Assembly (NCBI GenBank): GCA_944386455.1 | Contig: CALXBC010000008.1 | Location: forward strand, 1-64,000 | Source of the DNA: an uncultured Clostridia bacterium | GTDB lineage: Bacteria > Bacillota > Clostridia > Oscillospirales > Ruminococcaceae | Length of the DNA stretch: 64,000 nucleotides | Direction: 5' to 3' | Shown: piece after piece, positions 1 to 9,611 of the stretch | Numbering within the stretch: position 1 is the stretch's first letter | Layout: each line of letters begins with the position of its first letter | Made by a program: the position numbers and the translations under genes | Notes under the pieces: model-generated | Seen by the model: the letters and a program-made list of their open reading frames with translations, nothing else | What the model was told of the DNA's origin: nothing | Databases searched by the model: none

Positions 1-2305
1 TGTTTACCGATACCGCGCCTGTGTTGTGGCAGTTTGTGATAGTGCTATCACCTGCATACCCCGCAATTCCGCCTACATGGACATTGATATATTGAGATGG
101 TTCGCCGCCAGCAGTTACCAATACGACCCCTGTATTGTAGCAATTTGTAATGGTGCCACCAACTGAAGAAACCGCGACTTTACTTATACACCCCGCAATT
201 CCGCCTACGTAGGCAGAGGCATATTGAACGGTTACTGACACCGCTCCTGTGTTGTAGCAGTTTGTAATAGTGCTATCACCTGCATACCCCGCGATCCCGC
301 CTACGTAGGCGGAGGTGTATTGAACGGTTACCGACACCGCTCCTGTGTTGTAGCAGTTTGTAATAGTGCTATCACCTGCACTCCCCGCAATTCCGCCCAC
401 ATAAGTAGCACCATATTGAGAAGTATCAACGGCTGCCGACACCGTACCCGTATTATAGCAATTTGTGATAGTGCCATTATCTGCCCGCCCTACGATTCCG
501 CCTGCATAAGCATCGATAGAAGAGGAGACAGATATACTGCCGTTTAACATCCCCAAATTCTTGATTATTCCTTGACTGTATCCAAATAGTCCTGCACATG
601 CAAGTTCGTCAGTTGTGCGTATGTCCACATACAGACCTTTGATTGTATGACCGTTTCCATCAAGCACACCGGTAAAAGAGGAATCGTAATCTGATCCGAT
701 CGGGTTCCATCCGGCTCCGTTATTGTAAAATTTTCCACCTTCGGTATAGTCAGCTTCAGTAAAAACAATATCGTTTGTCAGATAGTAATAACCGTCCAAT
801 GGATATTCATTCCCTATCATATTCAGTTCTTCGGGCGTAGAAATACTAATGGCATTTTCCGGCTTTGCAACTGTGACAGTGCAGGATACAGATTTTTCTC
901 CTCGCGCCGCAGTTGCGGTGATCACTGCTTTCCCTTCTGAACATGCAGTGACAACGCCGTTTTCAACTATTGCAACCGATTTATCCGATGTTGTCCATTG
1001 TAGCTGCTTTATAGACGGAACAGTTTCCCCGAAATCGGGCGTTAATGTCGCTGCTTCGCCAAAAACCAGCGATAAAGCATTTGGCATAGTCAATTCCGTA
1101 ACTGGAACATAGGTGAGACTTTCCATTTTCAAGTGCGGATAATCAAACATCTCCCAAGTGTTTTCGAAATCGAATCTATAATAGGTGGACTGATGCCGCA
1201 TCAGTTCATATGACAGACCGTCGCGAATATTGCCCTGTTCCTGATAATAGCAGTGCTCGACTGATCCAGCGCCTTCGTTTTTTCCCAAAATACCTCTATT
1301 TTGGTAAGCGGAAACACTACCGGTATTATAACAGGTGCTGATTACTCTGTGATAAAACTCCCCCTCTTTCTCAACACCTACCACATTGCCCCCGGCAATA
1401 CCTCCGGCATAGGAATAATAAGAATCGTTGGAACCGGAAACACTACCGGTATTATAGCAGTTGCTGATTGCGCCGATGTTTCCTCCGGCAACACCTCCGG
1501 CATAGGACTCGACAGAGGAATCGGAAGAGAAGGCGGATACACTGCCGGTATTGTAGCAGATACTGATTATGCTGATGTTTCCTCCGGCAATACCTCCGGC
1601 ATAAGGATGAGAAGTGGCAGAGGAAACGGAAACACTGCCGGTATTATAACAGTAACTGATTGTTCCACCCTCGTTATATCCTGCAATTCCTCCCGCATAG
1701 GCATAGGCAGAGGTAGAAGCAGCGGTAGAGGAAACATTACCGGTGTTATAACAGTTGCTGATTGTCCCACTGCTACCTCCCGCGATCCCTCCTGCATAGG
1801 AATCGGAAGAGGAAACACTTCCGTCCAACATTCCCAGATTCTTAATCGTACCACGTACATATCCAAACAAGCCAGCATAGACTACTTCGCTTTGAGTCTT
1901 GATGTCCACAAATAATTTTTTTATGGCATATCCATCTCCGTCAAACACACCAGTAAACGCAGACTTTTCATCTACTCCAATCGGTTCCCAACCTTGCCCG
2001 TCATTATAAAACTCTCCGCCCTCGGCAAAATCCGCCTCGGTAAATTCAATATCCGCCACCATCTTAAAATGGGCGTCCAAATAATTGCGCACGTTATTAA
2101 GGTGTGTTTTGTTGGAAATCAAATATGGATTTTCTTCCGTACCGTTTCCTCCTAAAAACTCAGTAGTGTTTTCGGTTAATGCAGTGACAACGTTGTCAAT
2201 CCCTTGGGCGCATACGGTCAGCAGCTGTACGGGTATCATTGTGAAAATCAACGCGGCGGATAATATGTAAGAAAAAAAGCGTTTTTTTCTCTGTTTATTA
2301 TTCAT
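1..2305 (-). CDS. GLUG-repeat cell-surface protein, 3' end beyond window
   Basis: An open frame runs unbroken from ATG at 2305 off the window edge (768 residues visible). SD GGAGGT lies 9-15 bases upstream. The N-terminus has basic residues, then a hydrophobic stretch ending near VCAQ, so it looks like a secretion signal. After residue ~50 come a strand-rich unit (GLFGYVRGTIKNLGML) and about five GLUG repeats of the form GGIAG-x-TISNCYNTGSVS. A bacterial Ig-like (BIG2-type) domain follows at roughly 385-465, ending in ACSEGKAVITATA. A second strand-rich unit and a second GLUG array then run to the window edge. GLUG proteins are secreted or wall-bound beta-helix-like adhesins; the anchor, if any, is outside the window. 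Neighbouring repeats are nearly identical in DNA (96-bp period around 241-432). The ligand is unknown. Confidence 0.85.
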   Translation of the reverse strand, partial: MNNKQRKKRFFSYILSAALIFTMIPVQLLTVCAQGIDNVVTALTENTTEFLGGNGTEENPYLISNKTHLNNVRNYLDAHFKMVADIEFTEADFAEGGEFYNDGQGWEPIGVDEKSAFTGVFDGDGYAIKKLFVDIKTQSEVVYAGLFGYVRGTIKNLGMLDGSVSSSDSYAGGIAGGSSGTISNCYNTGNVSSTAASTSAYAYAGGIAGYNEGGTISYCYNTGSVSVSSATSHPYAGGIAGGNISIISICYNTGSVSAFSSDSSVESYAGGVAGGNIGAISNCYNTGSVSGSNDSYYSYAGGIAGGNVVGVEKEGEFYHRVISTCYNTGSVSAYQNRGILGKNEGAGSVEHCYYQEQGNIRDGLSYELMRHQSTYYRFDFENTWEMFDYPHLKMESLTYVPVTELTMPNALSLVFGEAATLTPDFGETVPSIKQLQWTTSDKSVAIVENGVVTACSEGKAVITATAARGEKSVSCTVTVAKPENAISISTPEELNMIGNEYPLDGYYYLTNDIVFTEADYTEGGKFYNNGAGWNPIGSDYDSSFTGVLDGNGHTIKGLYVDIRTTDELACAGLFGYSQGIIKNLGMLNGSISVSSSIDAYAGGIVGRADNGTITNCYNTGTVSAAVDTSQYGATYVGGIAGSAGDSTITNCYNTGAVSVTVQYTSAYVGGIAGYAGDSTITNCYNTGAVSVTVQYASAYVGGIAGCISKVAVSSVGGTITNCYNTGVVLVTAGGEPSQYINVHVGGIAGYAGDSTITNCHNTGAVSVN
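191..432 (-). repeat. 96-bp tandem coding repeats in the GLUG array
   Basis: The string beginning CCGCTCCTGTGTTGTAGCAG occurs at 241 and again at 337, a 96-bp (32-codon) period, with diverged copies near 12, 140 and 440. The unit encodes one GLUG motif plus linker. Near identity at the DNA level suggests recent expansion or gene conversion, so repeat number may vary between strains. Confidence 0.75.
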
Positions 2306-2565: not shown

Positions 2566-2948
2566 ATGCTATTTCACGAAATTTTGCGATTGCTGATAGA
2601 AGAACGTGGGTTAACCCAAAAACAGACGGCAAAGGATTTACATATACCAGTTTCTACTATGGGCGGATATGTACAGGGAACCAGCGAACCGGATTTTGCA
2701 ACCTTAAATTTGCAACCTTAAAACTGTTGGCAGAATATTTTGATGTGTCGACCGATTACCTGCTGAATGTCAGATCGGGAAAATCCAAAACGCATGAAGA
2801 AGATGAAATTCTCCGTATTTTCCGTTCCCTTACTCCCGAACAAAAGATATTATATCTAGAGCAGGGCAAAGTCTATCTGAAATTCAATCAAAAAGAACAG
2901 CTAAAATTATCAAAATCGACTTTGGAAAGCAAAAATAACGCGGGATAA
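2566..2948 (+). pseudogene. XRE-family regulator frameshifted by a 14-bp tandem duplication
   Basis: The ATG at 2566 follows AAGGGGATGAG and opens an HTH_XRE protein (MLFHEILRLLIEERGLTQKQ) that stops at 2719-2721 after 51 codons. The 14-mer TTTGCAACCTTAAA occurs twice in tandem, at 2695-2708 and 2709-2722. Removing one copy joins DFATLKLLAEYFDV in frame and gives a 122-residue regulator: an HTH, the usual FDVSTDYLL helix and a polar tail ending at 2948. The gene is divergent from the GLUG surface gene across 260 bp of AT-rich DNA. A perfect tandem duplication can collapse again, so this may be an OFF state and not permanent decay. The downstream piece could still be translated from TTG 2727, but it lacks the HTH. 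Confidence 0.85.
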
Positions 2949-2965
2949 GAAATATGCACGCATAA

Positions 2966-3001
2966 AAATGCCATTCGCTCGTAGCAGAACGAATGGCATT
3001 T
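2966..3001 (+). terminator. Hairpin terminator after the XRE gene
   Basis: A perfect 12-bp stem (AAATGCCATTCG, 2966-2977, with its complement 2990-3001) encloses a 12-nt loop. The A and T tracts at its ends would let it work in both directions. Confidence 0.7.
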
Positions 3002-3015
3002 CAATATTTTAAATT

Positions 3016-3310
3016 TTATCGTTGATTCACAGGGATCTGATTGATTGCAAATAATGCGTAGCACAAAACAGGAATTACAAGATCATGAGATATGATATCT
3101 ATTCCTTGTTTCAGTTTTCCTATTTTATCTCCTTTTCTAAAGCTCAGGCATCTGTTTACCACTAAAAAAATTGTTCCCAGCGCCATGAAGATAACGATTG
3201 TCCAAGTATTGATAAAATTTGGGACTGCAACATTCAGAACCACAAATATCATCGCTATAAAACATGATTGTGCAAAACCGTTCCATATATTTTGAAATTT
3301 ATAATCAGAA
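3016..3310 (-). pseudogene. 3' remnant of a small membrane protein
   Basis: The frame encodes two or three hydrophobic segments (AMIFVVLNVAVPNF, IVIFMALGTIFLVV, LVIPVLCYALFAI) and ends at 3016. Upstream, the same frame runs into DNA that codes for a PolC-like fragment in a different frame, so the N-terminus seems to have been lost at a junction near 3310. The usual start is absent, although an internal ATG near 3250 could in principle start a short protein. The family is not recognised. Confidence 0.5.
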
Positions 3311-3591
3311 TCCCGGCAGGGACAGGACGTCATCTCCGTAAACCGCGCTGACCCCGTCGTTGACAAAGTAGTCTTCCACGCCGTAGATAACTTTAAAATC
3401 CCCGCCTTTTTTCGGATTTTGTCCACAGTCTTTACCGCCTCCGGATACGCCTGCACCACACCGTGGTCTGTGACAACGACGGCCGGATGCTATCACCGGG
3501 CGGCATGGTTTATAATATCAGTCACGGAGGTCACGTCGTCCATGGCGGACATTTTGGTATGTACATGTAGTTCTACCCGTTCCTTATCCAT
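3311..3591 (-). pseudogene. PolC-type DNA polymerase III PHP-domain remnant
   Basis: Reading leftward from ATG 3591 (SD AAGGAG), the DNA encodes VELHVHTKMSAMDD, then after two in-frame stops (TGATAG, where PolC has Trp-Gly) HPAVVVTDHGVVQAYPEA. After a frame change in an A-tract it reads FKVIYGVEDYFVND. This is the PHP metal-site region of Gram-positive PolC, in which HxH and TDHG bind metal. Stops, a frameshift and the missing rest of polC mark it as a dead fragment; the functional polC must lie elsewhere. It starts 32 bases after the reconstructed ancestral stop of the 577-residue gene, so it may once have been the tail of that operon. Confidence 0.75.
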
Positions 3592-3641
3592 CGCTTTCGC
3601 TCCTTGTATTTAAGCCAACAATATCAATAACTCTCGTTATG

Positions 3642-3864
3642 AGCGTGTCGAAAAAGCCGACACGCTCTCGGGGGACAAACACAATCACTGCGGCAAAGCC
3701 TTGTTCTGCGTTTTTCCCCCGACTCCCCCTTTTCAGTCAAAAACCGGCTCCGCAGGAGGCTTCGCCTCCGCTCACCGCCGGTTTTCTATCAAAGAGCCAC
3801 TCCGGCGGCGCATGTCCGCCTGCGTGACGATTTTTTATTTTTTTACCCTTTTTTCGACAGACTG
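3642..3864. mobile_element. MITE-like non-autonomous element with TIRs and 14-bp flanking repeats
   Basis: The 14-mer TAACTCTCGTTATG occurs at 3628-3641 and again at 3865-3878. The DNA between them has near-terminal inverted repeats, TGTCGAAAAA at 3646-3655 and its complement TTTTTTCGACA at 3849-3859, extendable to about 14 bp with mismatches. Inside are a 10-bp stem (GAGCGTGTCG, 3641-3667) and a longer hairpin whose arms are AAAACCGGC and GCCGGTTTT. No transposase is encoded. Removing the element and one 14-mer rejoins the neighbouring gene to a natural TGA (3624-3626). Confidence 0.7.
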
Positions 3865-5576
3865 TAACTCTCGTTATGTTTCCCAGTATATTCTGAATTT
3901 GTTTTCACCCGCTCATAATCCACAGAAATTCCCTGCTGTTTCGCCCAGCTGTCAATAGCACGAAGCAGCGGCATATTTTTTTCCAGCGGCTTTTGACCGA
4001 CTTGGTATATACGGCGAATCTTTCCATTCGCACAAACAAGCACAGCAATATATAACTGTTCCTGACGGATACCGACTGCAAAATAATCCGTTGAAATATC
4101 GGACGTCGGCAGCAATGCTCCCCACGGAGTCAGCCCCATGCACAAATGGTTTAGCACACGCCGGCTTTCTTCTACGTTGCTCAGCAATTGAAAATGATAG
4201 CTTTCTATCATGCAGTTTTGGATCTGCGGTTTCGTTAAAAACAGATAATTCGTATCACCGCTTGCTAATTCTTCCGCAAGCGGCTCCATGCCTTTTGCGC
4301 CGCAATATTTTCTTTCCGGTATATAATGGGATATCCCGGTAAAAAATTGCTTCTGCTTGGCATCCGAAAGCAACAGTACCGTTCCTGCTATGGTTTTCAA
4401 TCGATGGACCAGACCGTGCCCTTCTAATTGTAGAATAAACTGCAGTACGGTTGCTTCGCCTCTTGCTGCGGCCAACCGCAACAAAAAGGTGGCGATCCCC
4501 GGCATCCTGTGGATTGCCGCTAAAAGACTATAAATGTACGGAGAATTCAGAACCTGAACCAGATTTTCGATGCTAAAGGGTAGCATCAGGATTTCATTTG
4601 CATAAAACAGTAAGGCGGGATTTGCATAAATAACCTGCTTTACCCCCGGGTGATCAGGAAGACGGCTCATCCGAAACGCCGACTCCAGGTTTTGAATATG
4701 GTGAAGGCGCTTCGCTGTTTCCAAAAAATCCGCCTCAACTCCGGAGCCACAAAACGGAATGGCATCATAAAAAGAACGAGGAAACCCCAAAAAACGATTA
4801 AATAGAATCAGCTTTTCCAAAGTCACCTCGTCTGGAGAGAACGGAAAGTTACCGGCTTTTTTCTGAAATATATCGATTAAAGCGACCCTCAACGGTGTAT
4901 CGGAATTGATTTGGATTTTCATGGCATATTCATCCAGAGGGTTCTTTACAAAAGTAGCCTCTCTTTCAGCGGCTGGCTCATCTTCTGTTTCTCTCCAAAA
5001 GATTCTTCCCGTTTCATGATTGAATGTAAGCTCCAAAAAAATCGGAAAGCGCTTTCTCTGATATCCTTTTTCCCGGCGTACCGGTACTGGCGTAACATCA
5101 TTCGGATCCATCCTTTGGGTAATAACGGTTTTTGTCTCATCGCTTCGAAGCGTATAGCGCATAATCGCATTTGACGCCTTTGCCGAGAAACCGCAGTGGG
5201 AGCAGCCCAGAGTAACCCCCGCACTGGGCGGTGTTATAAACGCAAACAACTGACCGTCAACAGGTTCCGGAAACCCGTAAGGCGGAACTTCCAACAAAAT
5301 CCGGTTATGCCATTGGATTTCATAGTCGGTATGATGCGGAAGAAAAATGGCGTCGGTTAAACGAAACGTCTTTCCGCAATGCGGACATTCGTACATCTGA
5401 CGATAGAGTACCACCGTTCCGTCTTTTCGTTCAGCGAGATAATGAAAATCATTGTCCGGCCGAGTATCCGTTTCCGCTGTCAAATTTTCTTCCCGCTCCC
5501 AAAACAATCGATGACCTTTATACGGGATTTCAAGTACTCGCGCATTCGATAAAGTAGAATCTTTTCCTATATTCAT
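3843..5576 (-). CDS. Hypothetical protein with two CxxC pairs, fourth gene of nuclease-like operon
   Basis: A 577-residue soluble protein that I do not recognise. It has two CxxC pairs, ECPHCGKTF (C64, C67) and GCSHCGFSA (C125, C128), which probably bind one zinc together. A long helical middle follows, then a C-terminal segment (ALLPTSDISTDYFAVGIRQE, then IRRIYQVG) that faintly recalls PcfJ-type proteins; this is a weak impression. Its ATG overlaps the stop of the metallo-hydrolase gene by 4 bp (5573-5576), so the two are translationally coupled. The last six residues (SLSKKG) come from the inserted MITE-like element. The ancestral protein would have ended after NESY at 571 residues. Confidence 0.75.
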   Translation of the reverse strand: MNIGKDSTLSNARVLEIPYKGHRLFWEREENLTAETDTRPDNDFHYLAERKDGTVVLYRQMYECPHCGKTFRLTDAIFLPHHTDYEIQWHNRILLEVPPYGFPEPVDGQLFAFITPPSAGVTLGCSHCGFSAKASNAIMRYTLRSDETKTVITQRMDPNDVTPVPVRREKGYQRKRFPIFLELTFNHETGRIFWRETEDEPAAEREATFVKNPLDEYAMKIQINSDTPLRVALIDIFQKKAGNFPFSPDEVTLEKLILFNRFLGFPRSFYDAIPFCGSGVEADFLETAKRLHHIQNLESAFRMSRLPDHPGVKQVIYANPALLFYANEILMLPFSIENLVQVLNSPYIYSLLAAIHRMPGIATFLLRLAAARGEATVLQFILQLEGHGLVHRLKTIAGTVLLLSDAKQKQFFTGISHYIPERKYCGAKGMEPLAEELASGDTNYLFLTKPQIQNCMIESYHFQLLSNVEESRRVLNHLCMGLTPWGALLPTSDISTDYFAVGIRQEQLYIAVLVCANGKIRRIYQVGQKPLEKNMPLLRAIDSWAKQQGISVDYERVKTNSEYTGKHNESYSLSKKG

Positions 5577-6748
5577 AGCTGCAGTTTCTCCTCATCCTGT
5601 AAAATTATAATTTTTCTGTCCGGCAGTAATTTTCTAAAACGTTCCGGCATTTCTCCGTGGATCGGGATTAGACCACGTTTTGGGCAGACTGTTTGACAGA
5701 GCCGTACCAAGTCTTGTGGTCTGGCATGGCCACTCGTATGAAGATGAATGGGATGATAAGGTTCAATAAAAGCGGCCAGTGCTTCGTTTCTGGTATTCCC
5801 TTTCAAATATCCGTCCCACATTGAATAAATCACCCGGCTTCTGCCTTGATAGCGCTGAAGCAGTTGGAAATATACAGCGCCCTGCCGGATGATCATACAA
5901 AATCCCTGTTTTTCCATCCGTTCATCTAAATTGGGAGCATAGCTGTATAAGTGCTGAAAATCATAAAATTTGCTGTACTTTGCATGATACATCCGCACAA
6001 GTCTCAACTGTTCTTTTTGATACTGGTCACACAGAAAAAGCCGTCCCGGCGGATTGGCATGGTAAAAAGCTGCAATTCGGTCGATATTGGTACTGGAGCA
6101 AAAAACAAAGACATAGGGACATCCTTGCATAAGGATTTTGGCTTTATGCTGCAGTTCCCGTTCCGTAATAAACTGAGCAGTTTCCCGAGAAAGGGTGGTA
6201 CCTTCGCAAATCAGATAATCAATGTCCGATGCATACCGACCAAGCATATGCAAGGACTTCCCACCCCGAAATCCGTGCAAGCGGAAATCACCCGTATGCA
6301 AAATCCGCTTTCCCTCTGCCTCGATAATAAACATATAGGCGTCAAAGGCGGAATGATCGATCATCAGCGGCATGACAGAAATATCTCCGATCCGGACGGT
6401 ATCCAATGGCATAAAGGAATGAATGCTCTCGATCAAGGGTAAATTTGCGCTGTGAACACGCTGTGCATAATTTAGGTACAGCGCCTTTGCGGTTTTTCCC
6501 ATATAGATCGGCAGTTCTGGCAAAACTTCTCCCAGCCGCCCTACATGATCGCCGTGATAATGCGTGAGGAATAAAGCACTTTGCGATCCATCCGAGACGG
6601 TCAGGCCAGCGATTGGAAAGGAAGCCTCCTGAGATGCATTGCCAGGAAGATTCGAACCGAAATCTATAAATACCTTGGCACGGTTTGAGTCGATTTCCGT
6701 CACACAACCGCCAATCTGATGAGTGCCGCGGTGAATTATAATCTGCAT
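5573..6748 (-). CDS. RNase J-like beta-CASP metallo-beta-lactamase-fold hydrolase
   Basis: The 391-residue protein carries the metallo-beta-lactamase metal motifs LTHYHGDHVGR (H63, H65, D67, H68), DH at 131-132 and HTGDFR (H151, D154). C-terminal HTSGHA (337-342) and PIHGE (H364) are typical of the RNase J/beta-CASP group. The family contains RNA and DNA nucleases, so a zinc-dependent nuclease is likely. It is shorter than RNase J (about 555 residues) and lacks that protein's long C-terminal domain, so it is an accessory paralogue. It overlaps the upstream PD-(D/E)XK-like gene by 13 bp and the downstream CxxC gene by 4 bp. Confidence 0.8.
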   Translation of the reverse strand: MQIIIHRGTHQIGGCVTEIDSNRAKVFIDFGSNLPGNASQEASFPIAGLTVSDGSQSALFLTHYHGDHVGRLGEVLPELPIYMGKTAKALYLNYAQRVHSANLPLIESIHSFMPLDTVRIGDISVMPLMIDHSAFDAYMFIIEAEGKRILHTGDFRLHGFRGGKSLHMLGRYASDIDYLICEGTTLSRETAQFITERELQHKAKILMQGCPYVFVFCSSTNIDRIAAFYHANPPGRLFLCDQYQKEQLRLVRMYHAKYSKFYDFQHLYSYAPNLDERMEKQGFCMIIRQGAVYFQLLQRYQGRSRVIYSMWDGYLKGNTRNEALAAFIEPYHPIHLHTSGHARPQDLVRLCQTVCPKRGLIPIHGEMPERFRKLLPDRKIIILQDEEKLQL

Positions 6749-7419
6749 GGCTCTATACCGACTATCTTGTCACTGTCATCGCTTTCAAGGGTGGCAATAA
6801 AGCATTCTACATCTAGCTTTTTCATCAAATCCACAAGGGCTTTGGAATCTTTTTTCAGTTTTCCGCAGATTGCAGGAGCGGGCTGTTCAAAAAGAATGAT
6901 CGCCTTTTTCAGTTTTATGGCTCCTTTTGCGGCGGAGTGGAACAAAAAGTGTTCACTGTTATTGCCGCCCAGCTGCTTCCAGTAGGTATAAATTTCCATA
7001 ATCGCCCGCAAAGGGTGCTCCGTGCTGTCCGGAACCTTTAACTCTAAAAGATAAGCCGTGTCTCCGTTGCGGGAAAGCAGATCCACTTTTCCCATCCCTT
7101 CACAGCCCTTACGATTGTGTTTTAACGGCACCTGATAATCTACAATCGTTCCTATCAATGGCAGCGTACGCCCCATACACATTTTGCACATCCATTCTTC
7201 TTTACGAAAATTGGGCGCTGATTTTGCCTTTTCATAGGCTTCCGGATTAAATGGATACTTGTGAGATGATACTTGATAATCATCGCGGCTGCTTTCTGCG
7301 TACTCCCCATTAATAATCTCTGACAAATTGGCGGAAATTTGCTCCAGCACGGCAGGAGCAGTGCTTACTTTAATCATCTTATAAAGCGAATTGACATCCA
7401 GTTTTCCCGTGAGTGCCAT
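6736..7419 (-). CDS. PD-(D/E)XK nuclease-like hypothetical protein
   Basis: The 227-residue protein contains GKVDLLSRNGDTAYLLELKV. This gives D113 and E126-x-K128 on adjacent predicted strands, the arrangement of a PD-(D/E)XK nuclease core. VDYQVPLKHN precedes it, and a helix (HPLRAIMEIYTYW) follows, as in that fold. CKMC at 78-81 might bind metal. No close family comes to mind. SD AAAGGAGGAG lies inside the end of the preceding gene, with a 3-bp gap between them. The stop overlaps the start of the metallo-hydrolase gene. Nuclease activity is inferred from the motif only. Confidence 0.6.
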   Translation of the reverse strand: MALTGKLDVNSLYKMIKVSTAPAVLEQISANLSEIINGEYAESSRDDYQVSSHKYPFNPEAYEKAKSAPNFRKEEWMCKMCMGRTLPLIGTIVDYQVPLKHNRKGCEGMGKVDLLSRNGDTAYLLELKVPDSTEHPLRAIMEIYTYWKQLGGNNSEHFLFHSAAKGAIKLKKAIILFEQPAPAICGKLKKDSKALVDLMKKLDVECFIATLESDDSDKIVGIEPCRL

Positions 7420-7422
7420 AAA

Positions 7423-7821
7423 TTACTCCTCCTTTGCTTTGATAAAATAAGTAGCGGTTTTTACACCGAAGTGTGTGTGCATGGAAACCGACACATTTTT
7501 TTGCGCAGGATATCCAAGTGCTTTTTTAAACACCATTCCCCAAAACGCACCGATACTCTTTTTTTCAAACAGCGGCAAAATAGCCCTGTCATTCCCGGTC
7601 AGTTGCTTAAAATCCTCGGTGTAATAGGTCAAAAAGGTCTTAACAGGAGGAATACAAAACAAATCATTACAAAAAATAATATGAGACAGCAGCTCTTGAT
7701 CGCGTACTGCCGCCATGCACTGATCCCAATACGGCTTATATTCGGGATTCATCTGAAATTCTTTGAAGTGTGTGTAAACTTGAGAAAATTCGTTTTCAAC
7801 AATTTTTGCAACTGTATTCAT
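7423..7821 (-). CDS. Small hypothetical protein, first gene of the nuclease-like operon
   Basis: A 132-residue soluble protein of unknown family, starting MNTVAKIVENEFSQ. An in-frame ATG at 7869 is excluded because it lies upstream of the predicted transcription start. ATG 7821 has SD GGTGG at 7826-7830, though the spacing is short. The protein is rich in aromatic residues and Lys, with no membrane segment and no recognisable motif. It leads the four-gene operon and could be a partner, sensor or inhibitor of the putative nucleases, but nothing in its sequence decides this. Confidence 0.65.
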   Translation of the reverse strand: MNTVAKIVENEFSQVYTHFKEFQMNPEYKPYWDQCMAAVRDQELLSHIIFCNDLFCIPPVKTFLTYYTEDFKQLTGNDRAILPLFEKKSIGAFWGMVFKKALGYPAQKNVSVSMHTHFGVKTATYFIKAKEE

Positions 7822-7833
7822 AATACCACCATA

Positions 7834-7858
7834 TACATATGTAAAATTAACATATGTA
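7834..7858 (-). promoter_or_regulatory. Twin palindromic operators
   Basis: TACATATGTA (7834-7843) and AACATATGTA (7849-7858) share the palindrome ACATATGT, 15 bp apart, and lie directly downstream of the -10. This is the position where a repressor blocks a strong promoter. The TACA-N2-TGTA form resembles BlaI/MecI-type sites, but no such regulator is in the window, so the binding protein is unknown. Confidence 0.7.
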
Positions 7859-7859
7859 G

Positions 7860-7888
7860 ATAATATCATGTTTTTAATAATCTGTCAA
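7860..7888 (-). promoter_or_regulatory. Sigma-A promoter of the four-gene operon
   Basis: On the minus strand, TTGACA (7883-7888), a 17-bp spacer and TATTAT (7860-7865) form a near-consensus promoter. The start would fall near 7853, inside the palindromic operator pair. Confidence 0.8.
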
Positions 7889-8102
7889 CAGGTAAAATAA
7901 TAGTATTCTGAAAAAATAATAGAATTTATCGCTCTACGAAGAAGTATTGCTTTTATATAAAGATAGTATCGAACGAATTAAAAAATCTGCATATCATCAA
8001 AAAAGCATCAAAAGGCGCTGGGAGGTGTTCCTCGGGTTTCAAAGCGCTTCAACACTGCGAATACTTTACTGTTACATGTCTGCCAATTATTTTTCACATC
8101 CA

Positions 8103-8147
8103 CTCCAAAACCGCGTGCCGAGGGTTCAAGTCCTTCTGCCCCTGCCA
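8103..8147 (+). other. 3' half of tRNA-Trp, attachment-site remnant
   Basis: The sequence starts at an anticodon loop CTCCAAA (CCA, Trp). It continues with the 3' anticodon stem ACCGC, a variable loop, the T-arm GAGGG-TTCAAGT-CCTTC, the acceptor strand TGCCCCT, a discriminator G and CCA. The 5' half is not upstream, so this is not a gene. A tRNA 3' segment from the anticodon loop to CCA is the usual duplicated att core of elements that integrate into tRNA genes. In this orientation the intact tRNA, and hence the element, should lie to the left. Confidence 0.8.
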
Positions 8148-8218
8148 GTGAAAAAGACACGGAAAGCCTTGATTTTACAAGGTTACGATAAAGATACCTT
8201 TGTATTTATCGGTATCAG

Positions 8219-8248
8219 AGGACAGGAAGTGCGTAAGCACTGCCTGTC
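8219..8248. repeat. Hairpin between att remnant and recombinase remnant
   Basis: GGACAG-GA-AGTGC pairs with GCACT-GC-CTGTCC around a GTAA loop. It lies just beyond the stop of the leftward recombinase remnant and may be its old terminator. A wider pair, ATCGGTATC (about 8208) and GATACCGAT (about 8274), encloses it. Confidence 0.45.
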
Positions 8249-8259
8249 CTTTGGTATTT

Positions 8260-8874
8260 CTACACTTCTCCCACGATACCGATATGGGTGAAGTAGATGT
8301 CGATTTGCTGCTCCGAATGTCGTTTGTACCGTTCACTGCGCTCATGGATAACAATCTTGGATATAAAGGTGTGCAGGATTTCCGGCGTCAGTTCTGTAAT
8401 GCGGGTGTACTTCTTTGCAAGGGTTATGAATTTGTCCACATTGCTTACCGACTCGGTAAGCTGCCCGATTTCTTCATCCAGCTCCGGCAGACGAAGATTA
8501 AGCGCTTTCTGCTCGTCCGTATAGCCGTCAGCCAGCATACGGAACTGTTCGTTGTTGATTCGCCCGAGCACATTGTCTTCATACAAACGTTTGAACAAGG
8601 CGTTCAATTCTACTTTTCGCTTGGTAAGCCTGTCATGTTCCATTTGCTTTGCTGTCAGCTCCTTCCGGTTTTCGGAGGAACTTTTTTGGTTGATATATTC
8701 CGCAAATTCCTGTTCCCTGCTTCTTGCCGCATAAGTTACCCGCCGTAACTCTTCCAGCAGGATTTGGTCGAGAACGACTTCTCGGATTCGGTGGGGTGTG
8801 CATTTTTCCTTGACATTGTTCCGATAGTGAGAACAGTTATCATAATCATGTAGAAGTTTTTCCTGAGAAAGCTG
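8260..8874 (-). pseudogene. Large serine recombinase, C-terminal remnant
   Basis: The frame reads HDYDNCSHYRNN, CTPHRIREVVLDQILLEELR, LFKRLYEDNVLGRINNEQFR and LDEEIGQLTESVSNVDKF, ending at 8260. This is the zinc-ribbon end and coiled-coil/C-terminal part of Tn4451-type large serine recombinases (recombinase and DUF4368-type regions). A TGA at 8875-8877 interrupts the frame upstream, and the N-terminal catalytic resolvase domain is missing, so the protein cannot recombine DNA. An internal ATG (8643) leaves only a 127-residue C-terminal piece. It marks a decayed mobile element next to the tRNA-Trp scar. Confidence 0.8.
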
Positions 8875-8913
8875 TCAAAAAGGCTGTCAGAACGCCAATG
8901 AAAGCAAAACAGT

Positions 8914-9079
8914 CTATGCGGCTCCATCTTGCAGCATTTGTTTCGCGCTGCTGAGTGCCGCTGTGAACTCGCCCTTACCTTCGTCTTCATACATCGTTTT
9001 TTTCCGCCTCCATGCTTTCGTTTTCTTTACACAATTGCCGAAACCTTTCCGTCACAGCATCTTTTTCTTTTACTCCCAT
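8914..9079 (-). CDS. Two overlapping tiny ORFs upstream of the recombinase remnant
   Basis: SD GAGGTG precedes ATG 9079 (30 residues, MGVKEKDAVTERFRQLCKEN, stop 8987). ATG 8994 overlaps its end and encodes 26 residues (MYEDEGKGEFTAALSSAK, stop 8914). Both are charged and soluble and lie in the orientation of the recombinase remnant. They are probably relics of the same element; neither family is known to me. Confidence 0.35.
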
Positions 9080-9189
9080 ATAATCACCTCAAATATATTG
9101 TGTATGGGTTTATTCGCGACTGCGTATACGCATATGCGTTATTTTTTAATCAGTGATATATAAATAAGAAAATAAAATCCGGTAAAAAT

Positions 9190-9214
9190 AAAAAAGCGAC
9201 AGCCAAACGTCGCT
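9190..9214 (-). terminator. Probable leftward terminator hairpin
   Basis: AAGCGAC and GTCGCTT form a stem around AGCCAAAC. On the minus strand it is followed by a T-run. No leftward gene now ends here, so it may be left over from the mobile element's edge. Confidence 0.4.
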
Positions 9215-9244
9215 TTCAGTTATATTGGAAAGGATGGATTAAAA

Positions 9245-9457
9245 ATGGCGCAAAAAAAATCCAGTCATCGTAAAACACATATAAGCTATGACAAAAACGG
9301 CAGATATGACCCGCAGTATCATACAAACCAGTCTGTTTCAAAAAAAGTGAATCAAATCATCTCTATGGCAAATTATGACACAGACCCGTTGGGCAGTTAT
9401 ACTGGTCTGCCTGAAAATAATCAGGAAATCCCCACACAGGATGCTGATGATCTATAA
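9245..9457 (+). CDS. Small conserved-looking hypothetical protein
   Basis: A 70-residue hydrophilic protein (MAQKKSSHRKTHISYDKNGR) with SD AAAGGATGG and its own downstream terminator. It is basic at the N-terminus and acidic at the C-terminus (DPLGSYTGLPENN, then QDADDL). No cysteine, membrane segment or known motif. A good SD plus terminator argue it is expressed. Function unknown. Confidence 0.65.
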   Translation: MAQKKSSHRKTHISYDKNGRYDPQYHTNQSVSKKVNQIISMANYDTDPLGSYTGLPENNQEIPTQDADDL

Positions 9458-9472
9458 AAAACGTGTATATTT

Positions 9473-9503
9473 ATCCAGCCAGTCACTGGCTGGATATTTT
9501 TTG
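9473..9503 (+). terminator. Rho-independent terminator
   Basis: ATCCAGCCAG (9473-9482), loop TCA and CTGGCTGGAT (9486-9495), then ATTTTTTG. It ends the 70-residue gene. Confidence 0.9.
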
Positions 9504-9523
9504 ACATTATTTGCAGAAAGTAC

Positions 9524-9552
9524 TTGCATTTCCAGAAAGTCAGTGATACAAT
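9524..9552 (+). promoter_or_regulatory. nrdJ promoter
   Basis: TTGCAT (9524-9529), a 17-bp spacer and TACAAT (9547-9552). The -10 lies within the first NrdR box, so binding there would block transcription. Confidence 0.65.
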
Positions 9553-9590
9553 ATATTGTGTCATATATTCGGATGAATACAATATATTGA
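9547..9590 (+). promoter_or_regulatory. Pair of NrdR boxes upstream of nrdJ
   Basis: ACAATATATTG occurs at 9548-9558 (extended ACAATATATTGTGT) and again at 9579-9589, 31 bp apart. This matches the known NrdR box (ACWATATATWGT type) and its usual spacing of about three helical turns, so repression by NrdR is predicted. Confidence 0.85.
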
Positions 9591-9611
9591 TATGTAGAAA
9601 GGATGGTTCCC

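What the first reader, a model, noticed from the sequence alone, without database searches (positions are those of the whole stretch)
3843..7888. Four-gene coupled operon with two nuclease-like proteins under a twin-palindrome promoter
Seen: a near-consensus promoter; two ACATATGT palindromes 15 bp apart over the start site; then four leftward genes with a 3-bp gap, a 13-bp overlap and a 4-bp overlap. They encode a 132-residue unknown, a protein with a D113/E126-x-K128 PD-(D/E)XK core, a beta-CASP metallo-hydrolase with full HxHxDH/HTGDFR/HTSGH motifs but shorter than RNase J, and a 577-residue CxxC protein. Known: both enzyme folds are nucleases in many defence and RNA-processing systems. Inference: a tightly repressed nuclease module, perhaps anti-phage or RNA-repair, carried on an island. 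I know of no described system with this set.
Basis: partly seen in the sequence, partly recalled or inferred. Interest (0 to 1): 0.8.

Follow-up and report, generated by a model that had tools for sequence, protein, structure and literature searches.

The report
Twin-nuclease module with swappable partner
This bacterial gene cluster pairs two different predicted nucleases; the same pairing recurs in at least eight bacterial phyla, one of the two genes is repeatedly exchanged for a very different version, and the cluster is likely a not yet described defence against invading genetic elements.

Summary
In detail: promoter, twin ACATATGT palindromes, four closely spaced leftward genes, PD-(D/E)XK and beta-CASP motifs. 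The quartet is not the conserved unit; a pair is. A short (391 aa) beta-CASP protein, distinct from the genome's own RNase J, has a PD-(D/E)XK-type neighbour in 44 of 49 loci examined, in eight phyla. The neighbour falls into at least four groups without BLAST similarity and is swapped between beta-CASP genes 79-83% identical. In reverse, window-type partners (3 hits in 325 genomes) and C-type partners (2 in 316) all lay in a beta-CASP operon. The window partner's fold, predicted at pLDDT 93.7, matches EndoMS, Can2/Card1, PaqCI and Shedu. The twin palindrome is conserved before seven operons that start with the 132-aa gene, so I infer an autorepressor. The 577-aa protein is distantly PcfJ-like. 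Patchy occurrence (2-3% of genomes), plasmid carriage, WYL regulators and restriction genes near some copies favour defence; no experiment shows it, and repair or element-maintenance roles remain possible. PolC-like polymerase genes or pieces recur in these operons, unexplained. PADLOC 2.0 has no model that fits the window's genes.

The parts
7860..7888 (-). sigma-70-type promoter, TTGACA-17-TATTAT with TG before the -10
   Evidence: 11 of 12 matches, best of 15 in 2900-9600
7835..7857 (.). twin-palindrome operator ACATATGT-N7-ACATATGT just downstream of the -10
   Evidence: same kind of site at the same place before the 132-aa gene in L074, L093, L143, L144, L145, L146
7423..7821 (-). 132-aa first gene (P132); inferred autorepressor of the operon
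   Evidence: found in 16 of 396 family genomes, window included, alignment A5; no match in Pfam, PADLOC, NCBIfam (E up to 1), PHROGs (E up to 0.01) or PDB sequences (E up to 5)
6736..7419 (-). 227-aa PD-(D/E)XK nuclease-type protein (partner group A); D113, E126, K128
   Evidence: invariant residues, AlphaFold2 pLDDT 93.7, PDB comparison
5573..6748 (-). 391-aa beta-CASP metallo-beta-lactamase-fold protein, the constant core of the module
   Evidence: Pfam Lactamase_B_2 and RMMBL over cut-off, motif alignment and tree
3843..5576 (-). 577-aa protein with two CxxC pairs, distant PcfJ-like
   Evidence: BLASTP to L161 (PcfJ at the Pfam cut-off) 21% over 549 aa, E 2.6e-20
3311..3606 (-). decayed piece of a PolC-type DNA polymerase (PHP domain), two in-frame stops and a frame change

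Best explanation
This operon is one member of a widespread module in which a constant beta-CASP protein is encoded beside one of several interchangeable PD-(D/E)XK-type proteins (44 of 49 loci examined), and which likely defends the cell by cutting the nucleic acids of invading phages or plasmids. Shown by the calls: the pairing, the partner exchange, the conserved active-site residues of both proteins, and the conserved operator; the PD-(D/E)XK fold of the window's partner is a confident prediction. Inferred: the 132-aa first protein binds the twin palindrome over the predicted transcription start and holds its own operon off. Inferred: the PD-(D/E)XK protein is the variable, target-recognising endonuclease, which would be why it is swapped. 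Inferred: the beta-CASP protein is the shared follow-up nuclease, more likely acting on RNA (it keeps the motif-C histidine of the RNase J and CPSF73 type). The PcfJ-like 577-aa protein here, and the membrane-type proteins, metallophosphoesterases, DEDD exonucleases and PolC-like proteins of other loci, would be variable accessories.
For: Pairing: a PD-(D/E)XK-type gene lies within three genes of the beta-CASP gene in 44 of 49 loci (my tally; five of the 44 by motif alone); strict motif directly upstream in 26 of 40 neighbours against 5 of 123 control ORFs (the pattern was written after seeing examples). Reverse: partner A 3 of 325 genomes and partner C 2 of 316, each time in a beta-CASP operon (with 36-38). 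Partner exchange: L079, L080, L081 have beta-CASP proteins 79-83% identical with partners C, D, A; L071/L072 (71%) B/A; L021 against L022 and L023 (73%) B/A; 12 state changes on the tree against a shuffled mean of 15.6 (11-20). Active sites: HxHxDH in 41 of 42 rows with letters there, motif B and C histidines in 44 of 44 rows. Accessory lifestyle: 9 of 394 order genomes and 12 of 391 class genomes once one unrelated hydrolase is taken from each list; not found in the one other genome of the genus searched, 83% complete; on plasmids (nine regions kept); beside DUF262, WYL and restriction-methylase genes in single loci; flanking ORFs hit 76 PADLOC families against 32 in controls. Operator: upstream half 100% and downstream half 86% pairwise identity in seven operons, against 51% in the promoter spacer and 42% in the leader.
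Against: No phage challenge or nuclease assay exists. Scans of viral contigs found no relative and the phage records only distant ones, at most 30% identical. Of five other window genes scanned, two match PADLOC models only through general ATPase parts (Lon-like and RecN-like by my reading) and three match nothing, so this copy is not in a rich defence island. PADLOC flank results are counts of families, not of proteins; flanks span eight phyla while controls are Clostridia only, and a few module genes were among the flanks. The motif-C histidine does not fix the substrate: changing Val to His in SNM1A did not change its DNA preference (PMC4678830, passages read). The 132-aa gene was found without the nucleases in six of 16 genomes, so it may have another role, and L075 (63% identical) lacks the operator. 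Two loci with complete surroundings (L061, L070) have no PD-(D/E)XK neighbour. PolC-like and PolY-like genes nearby fit a repair role as well.
Confidence: 0.45

Rival explanations
1. A DNA-damage cassette: the beta-CASP protein trims lesions like SNM1A, the PD-(D/E)XK protein cuts, and PolC-like or Y-family polymerases fill in.
For: PolC-like genes without the exonuclease segment, or pieces of them, lie in the same direction in or beside the operon in L021, L022, L023, L031, L033, L079, L087, L151 and (split contig) L099; none in 20 control regions. A Y-family-looking polymerase (recognised by eye) follows in L031. SNM1A and Apollo are weak sequence matches of the beta-CASP protein. The best-scoring structural match of the PD-(D/E)XK protein is the mismatch endonuclease EndoMS.
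Against: The beta-CASP protein keeps the motif-C histidine that SNM1 enzymes lack, and RNase J matches it better than SNM1A does. Several PolC-like genes are fragments or have lost catalytic aspartates (L022, L087, L099: read by eye). No ligase or helicase match in the window operon. Swapping one subunit between very different families is not expected of a repair cassette (general knowledge).
Confidence: 0.2
2. An element-maintenance or addiction module: an autorepressor plus toxic nucleases that keep a plasmid or integrated element in the cell.
For: First-gene operator logic as in toxin-antitoxin operons (comparison recalled), PcfJ-like fourth gene, plasmid carriage, serine recombinase near L073.
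Against: No antitoxin-like gene is shared by all loci; the 132-aa gene was seen in only 6 of the 49 loci, and partner exchange is not typical of such modules.
Confidence: 0.2
3. A paralogue of RNase J with a housekeeping RNA-processing role that happens to sit in an operon.
For: RMMBL domain and RNase J-like motifs.
Against: Patchy occurrence, separate clade from RNase J in the tree, far below the RNase J cut-off (40 of 400 bits), recurrent PD-(D/E)XK neighbour.
Confidence: 0.07

Closest known systems
Type VII CRISPR-Cas (Cas14 beta-CASP effector)
   Same: A beta-CASP nuclease serves as an immune effector on RNA (PMC10910872 and PMC12669027, passages read).
   Different: No Cas5 or Cas7 match among the four proteins; 391 aa leaves no room for the Cas10-like C-terminal domain of about 200 aa; the partner is PD-(D/E)XK.
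Nuclease-protease pairs (HamM and relatives in Hachiman, AVAST, Lamassu, DRT)
   Same: A metallo-beta-lactamase-fold nuclease is shared between defence operons as a module (PMC12799240, abstract and passages read).
   Different: [quoted passage not shown] here the partner is a PD-(D/E)XK protein and no protease match is present.
RNase J (RnjA/RnjB)
   Same: beta-CASP fold, HxHxDH, H-x-SGH and P-x-H motifs.
   Different: 391 aa (RNase J frames listed are mostly 550-860 aa), separate clade, patchy, coupled to another nuclease-type gene in most loci.
Shedu (SduA), Can2/Card1, PaqCI and other PD-(D/E)XK immune nucleases
   Same: Same predicted fold and D...E-x-K core.
   Different: The 227-aa protein is shorter than these enzymes and no sequence match was found.
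PcfJ-like proteins (Pfam PF14284)
   Same: The 577-aa protein aligns over its length with a protein of G062 that sits at the PcfJ cut-off.
   Different: No direct match to PF14284; its start codon overlaps the stop of a nuclease-type gene.

Membership tests
beta-CASP metallo-hydrolases | MBL motifs 1-4 plus beta-CASP motifs A, B, C | tested here: met
   (RMMBL 25.5 bits, cut-off 21.6)
RNase J | score over the curated RNase J cut-off and full length with C-terminal domain | tested here: not met
   40.3 of 400 bits for TIGR00649, 391 aa; separate clade
SNM1/Artemis-type DNA beta-CASP | valine in place of histidine at motif C | tested here: not met
   histidine in 44 of 44 family rows; feature from PMC4678830 (passages)
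PD-(D/E)XK superfamily | alpha-beta core with D and E-x-K on adjacent strands | tested here: met
   window's partner only; other partner groups by motif
Shedu, Can2/Card1, PaqCI (PD-(D/E)XK immune nucleases) | sequence relationship or shared accessory domains | tested here: inconclusive
   fold matches only; no sequence match in the PDB search
Any anti-phage system in PADLOC-DB 2.0 | signature protein matched by a PADLOC model | tested here: not met
   no model for the beta-CASP, 132-aa or 577-aa protein at E up to 1; PD-(D/E)XK best 0.021; five partners of groups B, C and D: four none, one weak (PDC-S18, 4.6e-5)
Type VII CRISPR-Cas | Cas5 and Cas7 in the operon | tested here: not met
   none of the four proteins matches such a Pfam or NCBIfam family
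Type VII CRISPR-Cas | CRISPR array | not tested
   no array search was run
HamM-type nuclease-protease pair | partner trypsin-like protease | tested here: not met
   no protease match in the four proteins
Restriction-modification | cognate methyltransferase in the operon | tested here: not met
   no methyltransferase match
PcfJ-like (577-aa protein) | match to PF14284 | tested here: inconclusive
   no direct match, but homologous over 549 aa to a protein at the family's cut-off
Autorepressor (132-aa protein) | binds its own operator | not testable with these tools
   operator conservation only

The most novel reading that the evidence does not exclude
A new class of prokaryotic immune system built like a tool handle with exchangeable bits: a constant RNA-cutting beta-CASP enzyme, a swappable PD-(D/E)XK recognition nuclease that sets what is attacked, an autorepressing first gene that works as the trigger, and PolC-derived pseudo-polymerases that lure or sense replication factors of invaders.
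Probability: 0.3. Interest if true: 0.88.

Novelty: new variant of a known kind. Interest (0 to 1): 0.68.

Why it matters
Partner exchange beside a constant protein is one way in which immune systems change specificity. If confirmed, this would add a two-nuclease system seen in eight phyla that PADLOC 2.0 does not hold, give beta-CASP enzymes an immune role outside CRISPR, and put function on several PD-(D/E)XK-type groups for which I found no Pfam family. The pairing, the operator and the active sites make direct tests simple.

Tried and rejected
Rejected: the quartet as a conserved system (only the window and, judged by the equal contig length of P0003 and P0122 at 10,330 bases, probably one more contig join beta-CASP and the 577-aa protein). 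Rejected: hydrolases L068, L078, L091 as members (separate clade; they lack the DHS and H-x-SGH pattern); L078 and L091 are the G377 and G560 rows. Rejected as exclusive to the module: PolC-like extra genes, since 2 of 33 genomes chosen without the module carry one (G002, G067; a third row, G001 C76, may be its DnaE), and G420 has one far from its module. L034's polymerase is DnaE-like by eye and not counted. The window's PolC piece matches its own housekeeping PolC better (51-67%, E 1.5e-23) than L021's (52%, 6e-12), so its origin is open.

Led nowhere: literature searches on beta-CASP or MBL fold with anti-phage, antiphage, defence, defense islands, RNase J-like, operon gave no description of the pair, in an open-licence library and mostly from listings; passages were read in PMC12669027, PMC13142454, PMC11090510, PMC3710099, PMC12799240, PMC10910872, PMC4678830. 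PMC11090510 names an MBL-fold protein in a figure legend beside CoCoNuT and CARF systems; I did not follow that. PcfJ with phage gave mostly worm-plasmid papers. ARAGORN found no tRNA in the window. G001 gave no clean empty site, only that similarity to the window starts at 9543, upstream of an nrdJ-like gene. PDB sequence searches with the PD-(D/E)XK, 577-aa and 132-aa alignments gave nothing meaningful. A fold absent is not thereby excluded.

Rows dropped before counts: L068, L078, L091 (not the family), L083 (second copy in the genome of L082), L086 (near-copy of L085); from the tree and motif table also L024, L082, L088, L095 (broken or cut genes), and L075, which was recognised later. Flank scan: 146 of 156 candidates (150 drawn, four left out by me); controls: 146 of 170. 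The control regions were placed by me on known contigs, away from the module and from the housekeeping polC and dnaE hits, 12 kb each, while module loci are up to about 18 kb.
Full report
What is there. The finding reads correctly from the sequence. On the minus strand a TTGACA-17-TATTAT promoter (7888-7860) is followed by ACATATGT-N7-ACATATGT (7857-7835) and four genes: 132 aa (7821-7423), 227 aa (7419-6736), 391 aa (6748-5573) and 577 aa (5576-3843), with gap 3, overlap 13 and overlap 4.

The 391-aa protein. Pfam finds Lactamase_B_2, Lactamase_B and the RMMBL domain over their cut-offs. RNase J models match far below their cut-offs, and the genome has its own RNase J on another contig. The best solved relatives by sequence are an uncharacterised protein EF2904 (2az4, E 3e-16) and RNase J (E 6e-11 and weaker), then SNM1A and Apollo. 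In a tree with three RNase J proteins and three other hydrolases, the window protein and 43 relatives form a separate group (support of its base 84, and some rows are long). HxHxDH is complete in 41 of 42 rows with letters there; the motif-B and motif-C histidines are kept in 44 of 44. The motif-C histidine is found in most beta-CASP subfamilies and replaced by valine in the DNA-acting SNM1 group; but putting histidine into SNM1A did not change its DNA preference (PMC4678830, passages read). So RNA is the likelier substrate, not a proven one.

The pair is the unit. I collected beta-CASP relatives from 18 genome contigs, from plasmid records (18 records; ten regions fetched, nine kept) and from genome searches (regions), and listed their neighbours. 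After dropping three unrelated hydrolases and two near-copies, 49 loci remain. In 44 a neighbour within three genes has the D...(E/Q)-x-K core; in L024, L031, L033, L035 and the Mrr-like L073 the assignment rests on the motif alone. Without one: L061, L070, L082 (beta-CASP gene itself broken), L076 and L090 (near contig ends). The strict motif occurs directly upstream in 26 of 40 same-strand neighbours of 100-420 aa, against 5 of 123 ORFs of 150-420 aa from 20 control regions of these genomes and 9 of 135 flanking ORFs (I wrote the pattern after seeing examples, so the contrast is somewhat flattered). In reverse, the window-type partner profile found 3 of 325 genomes and partner C 2 of 316, each time in an operon with the beta-CASP gene (with 36-38); partners B and D were not searched this way. 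Phyla by record title: Bacillota, Bacteroidota, Fidelibacterota, Synergistota, Elusimicrobiota, Ignavibacteriota, Fibrobacterota, Pseudomonadota; five of them rest on one metagenome-assembled contig each.

Partners are exchanged. By BLAST or phmmer linkage there is group A (window type), B (by eye with an N-terminal YY-x-G-x-S region), C (SAIDLWG...ELK), D, an Mrr-like one and singletons. Three beta-CASP proteins 79-83% identical (L079, L080, L081) stand beside C, D and A; L071 and L072 (71%) beside B and A; L021 and L022/L023 (73%) beside B and A. Over 38 labelled tips 12 changes are needed; 300 shuffles gave a mean of 15.6 and a range of 11-20, so partner type follows the beta-CASP tree only weakly.

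The first gene and its operator. The 132-aa protein is found in 16 of 396 genomes of the family, the window's included. Ten of the 16 lie beside partner or beta-CASP genes (window, L074, L075, L093, L143, L144, L145 at a contig end, L146, L150, L151); in six none was found in the stretch fetched (L147-L149, L152 with only 1.8 kb downstream, L153, L154). In seven operons whose protein is 62% or more identical, the same kind of twin site follows the -10: the upstream half is identical in all, the downstream half 86%, while the promoter spacer is 51% and the leader 42% identical (three of the seven come from one genus, and all from one family). L075 (63%) has a different inverted repeat; L148 and L149, without nucleases, have degenerate versions; L021 and L150-L153 show none that I recognise. 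As the site follows this gene, I infer that the protein itself binds it. Other loci instead carry a receiver-like (by eye) plus HTH regulator upstream (L029, L030, L071, L079, L080, L081) or WYL proteins.

The fourth gene. Five homologues of the 577-aa protein were listed, from a capped candidate list, and none in the other related loci. It aligns over 549 aa (21%, E 2.6e-20) with a protein of G062 that sits exactly at the Pfam cut-off for PcfJ, so I call it distant PcfJ-like, a family I recall from conjugative elements, function unknown. Its structure could not be predicted here.

Lifestyle. At E 1e-18 searches list 10 of 394 genomes of the order and 13 of 391 of the class, the window's included in both; one row in each (G377, G560) is an unrelated hydrolase, leaving 9 and 12. 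The module was not found in the only other genome of the genus searched (G001, 83% complete), occurs on plasmids and was not found in viral contigs; phage records gave only matches of at most 30% identity. Near single copies are DUF262 proteins, an Eco57I-type methylase with a GIY-YIG nuclease, and UvrD. Among 146 flanking ORFs 76 PADLOC families were hit, among those shown type III and II methylases, PDC-S01, SoFic and WYL; among 146 control ORFs 32, among those shown mostly general ATPase, HTH and desulfurase models by my reading (25 families shown each). These are counts of families, some module genes were among the flanks, and controls are Clostridia only, so the contrast is suggestive.

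PolC-like genes. Genes resembling the PolC alpha subunit without its exonuclease stretch, or pieces of it, lie in the same direction in or beside the operon in L021, L022, L023, L031, L033, L079, L087, L151 and L099. The window has a decayed piece about 240 bases below the fourth gene. No control region had one (regions placed away from known polC), but 2 of 33 genomes without the module carry an extra one elsewhere. Some copies keep the catalytic aspartates (L023, L079; L021 in part), others lost them (L022, L087, L099; all read by eye). This is unexplained.

Interpretation. I favour an anti-element immune module: a variable PD-(D/E)XK endonuclease, a constant beta-CASP nuclease and, in this subset, an autorepressor. 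The strongest alternatives are a lesion-processing cassette and an element-maintenance module. Function is not shown. Described relatives in spirit are type VII CRISPR and the nuclease-protease pairs of several defence systems; features that define them were tested and not met. The literature searches cover an open-licence library and found no description of this pair.

Noticed in passing
window 3311-3606 (-); L021, L022, L023, L031, L033, L079, L087, L099, L151: PolC-like DNA-polymerase genes without the exonuclease stretch, or catalytically decayed pieces, recur in or beside beta-CASP operons; unexplained.
   Followed up: partly
L098:374-1891 and L097:7341-8612: Stand-alone PolC-like proteins away from the module: one of 505 aa begins with a Cro/CI-type HTH domain, one of 423 aa looks catalytically dead by eye.
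   Followed up: no
window 8260-8990 (-): Broken end of what looks by eye like a large serine recombinase, next to a stretch resembling a tRNA 3' end near 8105-8150 (ARAGORN finds no tRNA); possibly the scar of a mobile element.
   Followed up: no
L071, L072 (333-aa genes overlapping the beta-CASP gene by 4): DEDD-type 3'-5' exonuclease (Pfam RNase_T, tested on the L071 copy) with an N-terminal region that by eye resembles that of the HTH regulators of related loci.
   Followed up: partly
L061:7455-8024, L067:7215-7859, L079:10557-11255: Calcineurin-like metallophosphoesterases coupled to or near the beta-CASP gene (L061 and L079 by Pfam; L067 by its annotation).
   Followed up: partly
L093:5191-5925, L074:6528-7190, L085, L092, L094, L143: A small protein family with apparent N-terminal membrane helices (by eye) sits between the PD-(D/E)XK and beta-CASP genes.
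   Followed up: partly
L147, L148, L149: The 132-aa gene stands without the nucleases in one genus, with a weakened version of the twin operator in two of three.
   Followed up: partly
window 2-2305 (-): Large repeat-rich surface-type protein (by eye) running off the window start.
   Followed up: no
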